A stretch of DNA of 64,000 nucleotides, taken from positions 1-64,000 of the forward strand of contig NZ_JAQFWQ010000027.1 of assembly GCF_027706725.1 (NCBI RefSeq), given 5' to 3'. Positions 1 through 8,235 of the stretch are shown here, piece after piece; within the stretch, counting starts at the first letter, position 1, and each line of letters starts with the position of its first letter. The DNA is from Nocardiopsis endophytica (GTDB lineage: Bacteria; Actinomycetota; Actinomycetes; Streptosporangiales; Streptosporangiaceae). The position numbers and the translations under genes are program-made. The notes beneath the pieces are model-generated. The model had not been told where the DNA came from, did no database searches, and was given only the letters and a program-made list of their open reading frames with translations.

Positions 1-694
1 TCGATGGCGGTGCGGATGATCTCCTCGGACGCCGCATCGCCCCAGGCCTGGAAGGTGAACCCGAAGGCGGACGAGGCGATCTCGGCGCCCCGGTCGGCGT
101 AGGCCTCGCGGTGGCGCTCCTCGTGCCCGGCGAGGTCCAGGCGCTGGGGAAGCTCCCTGCCGATCCGCTTGAGAGCACGGTCGGCCACACCGGACTGGGC
201 GGCGGTGACCATGATGTGCTCGGCCCGGCCCCGGTAGTCGGCCGCGTCCGGGTGCCGGTCGGCATCGCGCCCGGCCACGGCCTTCTCGACCATTTCCATG
301 ATCTGGGCGAGCTGGGCGAAGCCGATGCGCCCCTCCTCGGCCGCCGCGACGGCGTCGGGGTAGTCGTCCAGGTGGTCGGCCACGGTCATGATGGCGGCGG
401 CCTGGGCGGTGGAGCGGCCGTGCTCGCGCAGGAGCCCGGCCACGGTGGCGTGGCCGGTCCCGGCGAGGGCGCCGGTGGTGCGGATGCGGGCGGCCAGGCG
501 GGCCAGGGCCAGGTCGAGGGCGCCGAGCCCGGCGGCCAGCACCGCGAGCAGGTCGCACAGCAGGTGCTGGGCCCCGGAGGGGAAGTCCTCGGCAAGGGCC
601 CCGCGGGCCTTCTCAGCACGCCGGCCAGGCCGGCCTGGATGCGCTGGGCGCGCGATCCGGGCGGGGGCCCGCTGGTGTGCTCCTGGCTTGCCAT
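1..694 (-). CDS. DUF222/13E12-type (HNH nuclease family) protein, partial, apparent 5' frameshift
   Basis: The gene enters from the left edge, so its C-terminus, where an HNH nuclease domain usually sits, is outside the window. From about 612 down to 1 the minus strand has an open frame with strong GC3 whose translation (LARLAARIRTTGALAG, TVADHLDDYPDAVAAAEEGR, FGFTFQAWGDAA) looks like the helical DUF222 domain. That frame has no ATG upstream. The natural start, ATG at 694 (MASQEHTSG...RAQRIQAGLAG), lies in another frame. Restoring one base near 612-616 would join them as AGLAGVL-EKARGALAED. The alternative is a shorter protein from GTG at 542. DUF222/HNH genes are numerous and often decayed in actinomycetes. 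Function is unknown; a nuclease role is inferred from family habit only. Confidence 0.6.
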
Positions 695-841
695 ACCACC
701 AACGTTAGAACAGGGGTACGACAATTCGGGGGTTGTTTTCGAGCCTGTGGGAAAACCTCGTAACCCCAGGCCATGGGCGCCAAGATCATCCCGGGGCGAG
801 GCGCGGGGAGGCGGCCGGGGAGGCGGCCCGGGTGGTGGCGC

Positions 842-867
842 GGGGCCCTCACACCACCCAGGGCCCC
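842..867. repeat. hairpin, 8-bp perfect stem
   Basis: GGGGCCCT at 842-849 pairs with AGGGCCCC at 860-867 across a 10-nt loop. No T-run follows on either strand. Confidence 0.5.
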
Positions 868-936
868 GCCCCGCCCCCGCCCGCTGCCTTCCGGGCCCGG
901 CCCTGGGCTCGGGGCCTCCGGGAGCAATCCTGCGTG

Positions 937-977
937 GTGAAATCGACGCCCGATCTGCCTGAAAGCGTCGATTCCAC
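937..977. repeat. hairpin, 13-bp arms with one mismatch
   Basis: GTGAAATCGACGC (937-949) faces GCGTCGATTCCAC (965-977) with a 15-nt loop; 12 of 13 positions pair. It lies 40 bp left of the larger nested palindrome. Confidence 0.6.
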
Positions 978-1018
978 GACGCGGGTTGCCCGGACCCTTC
1001 TCCGGCTGTCCGGTATGT

Positions 1019-1191
1019 CCCCCTTCGCGATGATCTCGGGGAAGTCGGGGTTATCGTGTCCGGTTCAACCCCGACTTCCCCGAGATCAACACCGGCGCGC
1101 CCCGCACCGCCGTTCCCTTGTTGATCTCGGGGGAATGGACGCTAAAACCGGCCCGGTAGCGTCGTTTTCCCCGAGATCATCGCGAAGGGGG
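1019..1191. repeat. nested compound inverted repeat built on TGATCTCGGGGAA
   Basis: The outer arms, 1019-1043 and 1167-1191, are perfect 25-bp inverted copies. Inside, 1031-1052 and 1067-1088 form a perfect 22-bp stem with a 14-nt loop. A third copy of TGATCTCGGGG at 1122-1135 pairs with the right outer arm at 1167-1179, and within that loop GACGCTA (1138-1144) faces TAGCGTC (1157-1163). The word TGATCTCGGGG thus occurs four times in alternating orientation. There is no T-tract of the kind expected in a terminator, and no open frame explains the conservation. It could be a mobile non-autonomous palindromic element, a set of protein-binding sites, or a structured RNA. Confidence 0.8.
1031..1088. 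repeat. perfect 22-bp stem-loop
   Basis: Left arm 1031-1052 and right arm 1067-1088 are exact reverse complements separated by 14 nt. It is the strongest uninterrupted hairpin noticed in the window and forms the left half of the nested element. Confidence 0.85.
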
Positions 1192-1245
1192 CACCGGGTC
1201 GGTGGCCGCCGCGAACACGGGCGGCCACCCGCCCACCGAGCCGCG

Positions 1246-1687
1246 CCGCCCTCCCAAACCGCGAGGAGCCCGCCGCCCGGCAGGCAGGGCCGGGGAACCA
1301 CCCGGCTTGCTCCGTCGCCGCCATCGACGGCGACCACGCACACGCGCCGCGGCCGACAGCGCTGCGACGAGGGCCGCCGACCTGTCCTCGTCGCTGCTCT
1401 CCTCGCCACACTCCGGCGGTCCGCCGCCCGGCTGGGGCCCTGAAGCGGGGTACCAGCCCAGCCGCCCCGCTGGCCCCGACCGCGAGGGGCCCACCGCTCG
1501 GCTGGCGGGGCCGGGGAACCGCCCCGCTCGCTCCGTCGCCGCCCGCTCCGGTGACCATGCACGCGCCGGACGGCCGACAGCGCTGCCGCAAGGGCTGCCG
1601 ACCTCTTCTCGTTGCCGCCCTCCACCCCACACCCCGGCGGCCCTCTGCCCGGCCGGGGCCATGTAGCGGGGTACCAGCCCAGCCGCC
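1246..1687. repeat. two-copy imperfect tandem repeat, 221-bp period
   Basis: Copy 1 is about 1246-1466 and copy 2 about 1467-1687. Several landmarks recur exactly 221 bp apart: ACCGCGAGG at 1258 and 1479, CGGGGAACC at 1291 and 1512, and AGCGGGGTACCAGCCCAG at 1444 and 1665. Because 221 is not a multiple of three, a reading frame through copy 1 is shifted in copy 2, which argues against coding. Confidence 0.75.
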
Positions 1688-2006
1688 GCCCACCCGCACC
1701 ACCAGGACGTCCCTCTCCTCCTACTCGCGGTATCTGATGATCACGGCGGTCGGTGAATGCTGTTGGAGTGCGGTACCCATCACCTCGGGGGGTGGTCCGT
1801 GCCTCGTTGTCCAGTTCACTCTCCGCAAGGCCTCCGGTGGTGTGTGCTCGCGGATGAAGCGGCGCTTCACCTGGGCGGTCATGGCCGACCCCGACCGGGG
1901 CCCGGTGGCGGAGCGGCGCTGCCACCGCCCGCCGCACCCGGCCCCGGCACCCGCCCCCACCGGCCGCTCCCCGGTGTCCGCTCGCGAAACGTCCCCGCAT
2001 CGCTCT

Positions 2007-6867: not shown

Positions 6868-8235
6868 ATGACGCGACCACTGCGCGTGGGAATCGTGGGG
6901 GCCGGCCCCGCGGGGATCTACGCGGCGGACCTGCTCACCAAGGACGAGACCCTCGCCGCGGCCGGGGTCGAGGTCAGCATCGACGTGCTCGACCGGCTGC
7001 CCGCGCCCTACGGCCTGGTCCGCTACGGCGTCGCCCCCGACCACCCCCGCATCAAGCAGATCCAGTCGGCCCTGCACAAGATCCTCGACAAGCCGCAGGT
7101 CCGCTTCCTGGGCAACGTCGCCTACGGGATCGACCTCAAGCTCGAGGACCTGCACCGGCACTACGACGCCGTCATCTTCGCCACCGGCTCCGACCGCGAC
7201 CGCCCCCTGGACGTCCCCGGCATCGACCTGCCCGGCAGCCACGGCGCCGCCGACTTCGTCTTCTGGTACGACAGCCACCCCGACGTCGCGCCGCAGTGGC
7301 GGGTCGAGGGCTCCAGCATCGCCGTGATCGGCGCCGGGAACGTCGCGGTCGACGTCGCCCGCATCCTCGCCAAGGACGCCGACGACCTGCTGTCCACCGA
7401 CATCACCGACAACGTGCACCAGGGCCTGCGGGCCAAGGGCGTCACCGACGTGCACGTGTTCGCCCGGCGCGGCATCGCCCAGGCCAAGTTCACCCCCATG
7501 GAGCTGCGCGAGCTGGACAAGCAGCCCGGCGTCGAGGTGATCGTCTACCCCGAGGACTTCGAGATGTGCGACGCCTCCGTCGCCGCCGCCGAGGAGTCCA
7601 ACCAGGTCAAGACCAACGTCAAGGTCCTGCAGAACTGGGCCATCCGGGACCCCCGCGGCGAGCCGCGCCGCCTGCACCTGCACTTCCTGCACCGCCCCGC
7701 CGAGGTGCTCGGCGAGGACCGCGTCACCGGCCTGCGCACCGAGCGCATGGAGCTGACCGGCGACGGCGGCGTCCGCGGCACCGGCGAGTTCGTCGACCAC
7801 GAGGTGCAGGCCGTCTACCGCGCGGTGGGCTACCTCGGGTCGCCGCTGGCCGACCTGCCCTTCGACGAGGAGCGCGGCACCGTCCCGAACGCCGGCGGCC
7901 GGGTGCTCGACATGGACGAGCGGCACATGCCCGGCGTCTACGCGACCGGCTGGATCAAGCGCGGCCCGGTCGGCCTCATCGGCCACACCAAGGGCGACGC
8001 CCTGGAGACCGTCACCAACCTGGTGGAGGACCGGTCCTCGCTGCCCGAGGCCGAGGCGCCCGAGCCGGAGGCCTTCGTGCGGCTGCTCGAGGAGCGCGGT
8101 GTGCCCTACACCACGTTCGAGGGGTGGAAGCGCCTGGAGACGCACGAGGAGTCCCTGGGCGAGGCCGAGGGCCGCAAGCGCGTCAAGGTGCGCGAGCGCG
8201 ACGCCATGACCCGCATCGCCCGCGGGGAGGACTAG
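6868..8235 (+). CDS. fprA: ferredoxin/flavodoxin-NADP+ reductase, adrenodoxin-reductase type (FprA-like)
   Basis: A 455-residue flavoprotein of the adrenodoxin reductase/FprA type that passes electrons between NADPH and ferredoxin, feeding P450s or iron-sulfur enzymes. The FAD site is VGIVGAGPAGIYAADLL near the N-terminus, followed by APYGLVRYGVAPDHP, a hallmark of this family. A second dinucleotide fold is IAVIGAGNVAVDVARIL. Near the C-terminus MPGVYATGWIKRGPVGLIGH completes the FAD domain. ATG 6868 is preferred over in-frame ATG 6853 because GAGAAGGA lies 5-12 nt before it. The leader contains an iron box, suggesting expression rises when iron is scarce. No ferredoxin gene is adjacent; a P450 lies 50 kb away in this window. 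Confidence 0.88.
   Translation: MTRPLRVGIVGAGPAGIYAADLLTKDETLAAAGVEVSIDVLDRLPAPYGLVRYGVAPDHPRIKQIQSALHKILDKPQVRFLGNVAYGIDLKLEDLHRHYDAVIFATGSDRDRPLDVPGIDLPGSHGAADFVFWYDSHPDVAPQWRVEGSSIAVIGAGNVAVDVARILAKDADDLLSTDITDNVHQGLRAKGVTDVHVFARRGIAQAKFTPMELRELDKQPGVEVIVYPEDFEMCDASVAAAEESNQVKTNVKVLQNWAIRDPRGEPRRLHLHFLHRPAEVLGEDRVTGLRTERMELTGDGGVRGTGEFVDHEVQAVYRAVGYLGSPLADLPFDEERGTVPNAGGRVLDMDERHMPGVYATGWIKRGPVGLIGHTKGDALETVTNLVEDRSSLPEAEAPEPEAFVRLLEERGVPYTTFEGWKRLETHEESLGEAEGRKRVKVRERDAMTRIARGED

What the first reader, a model, noticed from the sequence alone, without database searches (positions are those of the whole stretch)
1019..1191. Nested compound palindrome built from four copies of TGATCTCGGGG
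Perfect 25-bp outer arms enclose a perfect 22-bp hairpin and a second hairpin, all using the same word in alternating direction. No gene, T-run or known family explains it. It could be a non-autonomous mobile element, a chromosome-organising binding array or a structured RNA.
Basis: seen in the sequence. Interest (0 to 1): 0.7.

Follow-up and report, generated by a model that had tools for sequence, protein, structure and literature searches.

The report
Mobile 58-bp palindromes ending Nocardiopsis genes
The nested palindrome is a two-unit copy of a DNA hairpin repeated hundreds of times in a Nocardiopsis genome, often just after the ends of genes; its form stays the same while its letters change, so it looks like a movable, interchangeable gene-end hairpin.

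Summary
The window (an unnamed Nocardiopsis) holds two 58-bp palindromes, 1031-1088 and 1122-1179, inside a larger composite repeat (about 910-1700). The unit TGATCTCG-N42-CGAGATCA occurs 366 times in this genome, 0 in the reversed control. Of 97 isolated copies from eight genomes 46 lie between convergent genes and 6 between divergent ones; 81 of 146 distances to gene 3' ends are 10-39 nt; 0 of 135 units lie inside a called gene. The end boxes are conserved; the inner stem varies but stays paired (82% against 48% shuffled). Between species sites are gained, lost, or hold palindromes of different inner sequence. In N. halophila many examined units sit inside two kinds of miniature inverted-repeat element, one with 8-bp target duplications. 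I read it as a REP/BIME-like mobile palindrome, kept mainly where it can act as a two-way hairpin at gene 3' ends. Against a simple terminator: U-tracts are rare (6 of 270) and G.U does not exceed A.C (38 v 42). No REP transposase is associated. The papers searched describe no such family.

The parts
1031..1088 (.). unit A: 58-bp palindrome TGATCTCG-N42-CGAGATCA
1122..1179 (.). unit B: second 58-bp palindrome of the same family, other inner sequence class
1089..1121 (.). 33-bp spacer between the units; other pairs in this genome have similar spacing
1019..1043 (.). left outer arm, exact 25-bp reverse complement of 1167-1191
1167..1191 (.). right outer arm
918..1018 (+). partner repeat 'C' with its own palindrome (arms 929-949 and 965-985, 86%); found beside units in many other composites
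1236..1456 (+). 221-bp GC-rich repeat 'M221', first copy
1457..1677 (+). second M221 copy, 81% identical to the first
910..1700 (.). extent of the composite repeat (positions matched by at least four other fetched stretches)

Best explanation
The feature is a composite copy (units A and B, partner repeat C, two M221 repeats) of a dispersed family of 58-bp extragenic palindromes in Nocardiopsis and some relatives. SHOWN: conserved boxes around CGNTGATCTCG at both ends; an inner stem that stays paired while its sequence changes; a mostly unpaired 12-nt centre; location outside called genes and often 10-39 nt after stop codons; presence and absence at orthologous sites; carriage inside two kinds of MITE in N. 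halophila. INFERRED: units spread partly by hitch-hiking in MITEs and partly by exchange of inner sequence between sites through the shared boxes; they persist where a stable hairpin at a transcript end is harmless or useful, as two-way 3'-end hairpins (termination without a U-tract, or protection or processing of mRNA ends), best seen between convergent genes. The window's own copy lies between two gene starts inside a composite, so it is probably a passive copy rather than a working gene end.
For: 366 exact copies against 0 in the control. 0 of 135 units inside a called gene. Isolated units: 46 convergent, 45 tandem, 6 divergent of 97, against 340, 1134 and 352 gene pairs (convergent odds ratio 3.9, p 6e-10; divergent 0.28, p 7e-4); 81 of 146 distances to gene 3' ends are 10-39 nt, mode 17 (15 cases), and in 8 the distance is -3, so that the stop codon overlaps the unit's TGA. 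Stem positions 9-23 paired in 82.3% of cells in 130 distinct units against 47.8% (maximum 52.6%) with shuffled halves. At 4 of 11 G025 units placed in G105 the site there holds a palindrome of another inner sequence and at 1 an unrelated 15-bp hairpin. MITE carriage with 8-bp target duplications. Stable fold, median -40.9 kcal/mol in 133 units.
Against: Only 6 of 270 flanks have three or more T in the 8 nt after the hairpin. In 56 units that can be oriented by one upstream gene G.U (38) does not exceed A.C (42), p 0.74, and loops show no orientation bias (20 v 25). Many orthologous sites manage without: 6 of 9 N. suaedae sites, and 5 of 11 G105 sites have no hairpin above the 90% level of random segments. 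One of the four swapped G105 sites (253402) has both boxes but a stem score of 9, under the 95% level of the random control. The window copy is not at a gene 3' end. No RNA data were available. Isolated units show no target duplication.
Confidence: 0.55

Rival explanations
1. Purely selfish or neutral palindromes. They insert widely and survive only outside genes and away from promoters; they stay palindromic because template switching at quasi-palindromes copies one arm onto the other. No host function.
For: Equal G.U and A.C counts. Off-length units in G004 include perfect palindromes of 44, 48 and 54 nt, as if both arms changed together. A decayed copy in N. suaedae (L055 site, reading mine). 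Units absent at many orthologous sites. MITE carriage.
Against: Avoidance of promoters alone does not explain the concentration at 10-39 nt after stops or sites that keep a palindrome while its sequence is replaced. Quasi-palindrome correction is recalled, not tested here.
Confidence: 0.27
2. Binding sites on double-stranded or cruciform DNA for a chromosome-organising protein or gyrase, recognised through the two end boxes; place after genes reflects supercoiling between convergent genes.
For: Conserved symmetric boxes and, in several genomes, near-fixed length (366 of 367 in G000). Strand symmetry. Gyrase and IHF bind BIMEs in E. coli (recalled).
Against: A protein site does not need a covarying inner stem. 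Length is loose in G004 (22 of 35). No candidate protein was sought.
Confidence: 0.09
3. Classical REP or REPIN elements moved by a RAYT transposase.
For: Copy number, extragenic place, mosaics and hairpins resemble REPs and BIMEs.
Against: The genome has one Y1_Tnp gene; the nearest unit found by the search lies about 5 kb away. G003, G004, G072, G014 and G086 have units but no Y1_Tnp match at E 0.001, and G001 and G002 only short partial matches. The units end without an unpaired GTAG or CGTC tag.
Confidence: 0.04
4. A regulatory small RNA or riboswitch-like element with a sequence-specific role.
For: Stable structure near gene ends.
Against: Inner sequence and loop vary widely; no Rfam match in the window; loop orientation is unbiased.
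Confidence: 0.03

Closest known systems
REP sequences and BIMEs, GTAG- and CGTC-tagged palindromes (PMC3733652, passages read)
   Same: Hundreds of extragenic palindromes, often paired or in mosaics, with compensating stem variation.
   Different: The paper's abstract gives REPs as 20-40 bp with an unpaired tag at one end; these are 58 bp, symmetric, box-ended and untagged. 'Actinobacteria', 'Streptomyces' and 'Nocardiopsis' do not occur in its main text.
MITEs (general kind; TIR and TSD features as usually defined, recalled)
   Same: In N. halophila units lie inside 220-256-bp elements (longer form 324 bp) with terminal inverted repeats; one kind has target duplications.
   Different: In the window's genome isolated units show no outer inverted repeat shared with those and no duplication.
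Highly structured transcript ends with few uridines, and bidirectional ends, in Streptomyces clavuligerus (PMC8269248, passages read)
   Same: Stable GC-rich stems, few uridines, use on both strands proposed.
   Different: Those are mapped RNA ends; here there are no RNA data, and these form one dispersed repeat family.
REPINs (PMC3116915, search listing only)
   Same: Miniature mobile extragenic palindromes without their own gene.
   Different: No RAYT gene goes with the units in the genomes examined.

Membership tests
REP (GTAG/CGTC superfamilies) | small extragenic palindrome in high copy | tested here: met
   366 copies; 0 of 135 inside called genes; larger (58 bp) than the 20-40 bp given in PMC3733652
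REP (GTAG/CGTC superfamilies) | unpaired GTAG or CGTC tag at one end | tested here: not met
   both ends are paired symmetric boxes; flanks beyond CGN show no such tag
REPIN / RAYT system | associated RAYT (Y1) transposase gene | tested here: not met
   units present in genomes without a Y1_Tnp match; the one Y1_Tnp gene here has no unit within about 5 kb
MITE (N. halophila carriers) | terminal inverted repeats | tested here: met
   9 of 11 examined stretches have both TIRs of one kind; 4 others have the CTAG-type ends
MITE (N. halophila carriers) | target-site duplication | tested here: met
   8 of 8 letters in 5 of the 9, 7 of 8 in 2, not clear in 2
MITE (isolated units of this genome) | target-site duplication next to the unit | tested here: not met
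   no consistent direct repeat in 83 isolated units of G000, G002 and G025
Canonical intrinsic terminator | U-tract after the hairpin | tested here: not met
   6 of 270 flanks with three or more T in 8 nt
Hairpin transcript end without U-tract | stable stem shortly after stop codons | tested here: met
Hairpin transcript end without U-tract | mapped transcript 3' ends at the hairpin | not testable with these tools
Known Rfam RNA family | match above the gathering score | tested here: not met
   0 matches in the window

The most novel reading that the evidence does not exclude
A genome-wide set of interchangeable gene-end hairpins: slots after stop codons are held by palindromes whose inner stems are exchanged between slots through the shared end boxes, with MITEs carrying new hairpins to new slots. 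Form is then inherited by site while sequence is not.
Probability: 0.22. Interest if true: 0.8.

Novelty: new variant of a known kind. Interest (0 to 1): 0.6.

Why it matters
It would bring a REP-like palindrome system of a different design (large, symmetric, box-ended, without RAYT) to a family of Actinomycetes. It gives natural experiments, the same gene pair with and without a unit or with swapped stems, on how high-GC bacteria end transcripts without U-tracts and how terminator-like hairpins spread. The composites also lie at many contig ends of this draft and so may be a reason why the assembly breaks.

Tried and rejected
RAYT or IS200/IS605 as mover: not supported. I read the sequence round the one Y1_Tnp gene but ran no family search on its neighbours. 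Target duplications of isolated units: none consistent. RNA selection by strand asymmetry: negative. The two N. halophila end repeats elsewhere: the 8-bp-duplication kind has 71 matches in G005, 2 in G000 (two mismatches each), 1 in G002, 4 in G001, 0 in G003, G004 and G025; the CTAG kind has 10 in G005 and 0 in G000-G004. Autonomous partner of these elements: not found; only listed places were inspected. Conserved RNA fold of the M221 repeat: weak, 2 covarying of 30 pairs on one strand, 1 of 32 on the other, 36 copies. Virus carriage: 4 viral contigs match the pattern, but the stretches are only 38-52% self-complementary, so I take them as chance; in L229 and L231 they overlap or adjoin listed ORFs. 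My early guess, from memory, that ORF 3-542(-) is a 13E12/DUF222 protein found no Pfam support and is dropped. Literature: ten searches listed no paper that I could recognise as describing this family; others (800 papers with the 8-letter word; 20 papers) were seen only as their first 15 and 10 rows.

Full report
What is there. The four words lie at 1031(+), 1078(-), 1122(+) and 1169(-); the 25-bp outer arms and the 22-bp hairpin are exact, the second hairpin is 87% paired. They form two units of 58 bp, TGATCTCG-N42-CGAGATCA, with a 33-bp spacer.

Copies. The 11-letter word occurs 154+151 times against 0 for the control. The full unit with exact boxes occurs 366 times; with inner lengths 27-56 allowed there are 367. 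In 913,626 fetched bases of this genome a relaxed search gave 83 matches, 81 of one length and two odd ones; 75 remained after a differently written search that asked for 60% self-complementarity. These stretches were mostly chosen round listed word matches; a few (C3, part of C7) were not.

Relatives. Exact units: G002 116, G005 66, G001 10, G004 22, G003 13 in the same genus; G025 147, G105 101, G072 6, G014 3, G086 2 in other genera; 12 of 200 genomes of the family match, one of them (G080) with a single stretch that looks non-palindromic to me. G002, G005 and G001 are N. suaedae, N. halophila and N. chromatogenes, since their places equal those of the named records; the others are unnamed. 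In a class-wide sample 5 of 394 genomes match, all in the same family. Share of units with exactly 58 nt among inner lengths 27-56: G000 366 of 367, G005 66 of 67, G025 147 of 151, G105 101 of 108, G002 116 of 123, G003 13 of 16, G004 22 of 35. In G004 the off-length units include perfect palindromes of 44, 48 and 54 nt. A strict length rule is therefore not universal.

Anatomy. Over 133 units positions -1 and 1-8 of the box are paired in 98-100%; position 0 covaries (82% against 49% expected); position 17 is G-C in 126; positions 24-29 pair near the chance level. Stem positions 9-23 are paired in 82.3% of cells of 130 distinct units, against 47.8% (maximum 52.6%) with shuffled halves and 27-37% with slid partners; in G000, G002 and G025 taken alone the observed value also exceeds every one of 1000 shuffles. 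Related sequences can exceed shuffles without selection, so this shows that the form is kept, not why. Some class B units combine two arm types, GACGCTA and GCCCCTA, which leaves mismatches (reading mine). Pyrimidine-rich DNA precedes and purine-rich DNA follows the units.

Composites. Many units of this genome lie in composites of units A, B or D, a partner repeat C, and 221-bp GC-rich repeats that point outward on one or both sides. The window copy has the 221-bp repeats on the right only. It lies between the start of an ORF without Pfam match (3-542, minus, cut by the contig end) and a FUSC-type gene. Window 1-1737 has no aligned counterpart next to that gene in the fetched loci of N. suaedae, N. 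chromatogenes and N. halophila.

Place. With a home-made gene caller (GC by codon position; not a standard program) 0 of 135 units lie inside a gene; 11 could not be placed between two genes. Of 97 isolated 58-nt units 46 are convergent, 45 tandem and 6 divergent, against 340, 1134 and 352 gene pairs in the same stretches. Of 146 distances to gene 3' ends 81 are 10-39 nt, the mode is 17 (15 cases), and 8 are -3, so that the stop codon overlaps the unit's TGA. The same pattern appears in G002, whose stretches were taken without regard to units.

Change between species. One search placed 18 of 75 G000 units in the N. suaedae stretches held; 7 rows (L042, L058, L086) rest on repeat matches near 75% identity and were dropped. 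The other 11 units make 9 sites: 2 shared with the same class, 1 decayed remnant, 6 without a unit (grouping and the remnant are my reading). In the other direction 3 of 21 G002 units were placed: the same 2 shared sites and 1 through repeats. At L079 convergent genes that I read as 20 nt apart in N. suaedae are 17+58+17 nt apart here. In genus g21, 11 of 12 G025 units could be placed in G105 with gaps under 400. At 4 sites G105 has a palindrome with another inner sequence; in two of these the box itself changed on both sides; one of the four (253402) has both boxes but a stem score of 9. One site has an unrelated 15-bp hairpin (score 15), one a weak stem (score 10), and 5 score 5-8; 300 random segments have a median of 6 and a 95% level of 10. 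In the other direction 4 of 13 G105 units were placed: one palindrome (the same site as one above) and three with scores 4-7. So some sites keep a palindrome while its letters are replaced, but many lack one.

Carriers. Of 20 N. halophila stretches fetched for near-identical units (not a random sample), 4 have the unit between ends CTAGTAGTACTTCGTT and AACGAAGTACTACTAG, 220 or 324 bp long. Of 11 others examined for a second element, 9 have both TIRs (GGTCGTGTCCGCTGG...), 225-256 bp, with exact 8-bp duplications in 5 and 7 of 8 letters in 2. These ends number 39+32 and 6+4 in N. halophila and 0-4 in each of the other genomes searched.

How it works. Place, two-fold symmetry and stem stability (median -40.9 kcal/mol) suggest two-way 3'-end hairpins. 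In S. clavuligerus structured transcript ends with few uridines, and bidirectional ends, have been mapped (PMC8269248, passages). Against a simple RNA reading stand the missing U-tract (6 of 270), equal G.U and A.C counts (38 v 42 in 56 oriented units) and unbiased loops (20 v 25). DNA-level correction of one arm by the other (recalled) would explain pairing without RNA selection. I give 0.55 to a mobile palindrome kept as a gene-end hairpin and 0.27 to a selfish one.

Kind. It works like REP/BIME palindromes but fails the tag and RAYT tests (PMC3733652, passages). I file it as a new variant of a known kind. Ten searches of the held papers showed no description; most subscription journals are not held.

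Noticed in passing
L209 and L212, 1920-2139: N. halophila copies in which unit and flanks together form a near-perfect palindrome of about 220 bp, the centres in opposite orientation; L210 and L211 carry a 324-bp form with another repeat on one side.
   Followed up: partly
G025/G105, offset 277005: A different hairpin with ends TGATCACGGCGA and TCGCCGTGATCA is shared by both species with a changed middle; possibly a sister design.
   Followed up: no
window 1236-1677: 221-bp GC-rich tandem repeat of unknown role; arrays point outward from the units in composites.
   Followed up: partly
window 929-985: A second palindrome type (TGCGTCGTGAAATCGACGC...) without the TGATCTCG box, recurring beside units as partner repeat C.
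   Followed up: partly
contigs C2, C5, C9, C10, C13, C16, C17, C18, C19, C24 of G000: Among the first 100 listed word matches, 10 contigs begin within 90 nt of the word, and several others end within 50 nt of it: the repeat lies at many breaks of this draft.
   Followed up: no
L056, about 7770-7830: A palindrome-like stretch with TGACCACTCACTCTTT near a unit pair is also present at the N. suaedae site that lacks the units.
   Followed up: no
window 728-765: Another palindrome-like stretch (GTTTTCGAGCCTGTGGGAAAACC) left of the composite.
   Followed up: no
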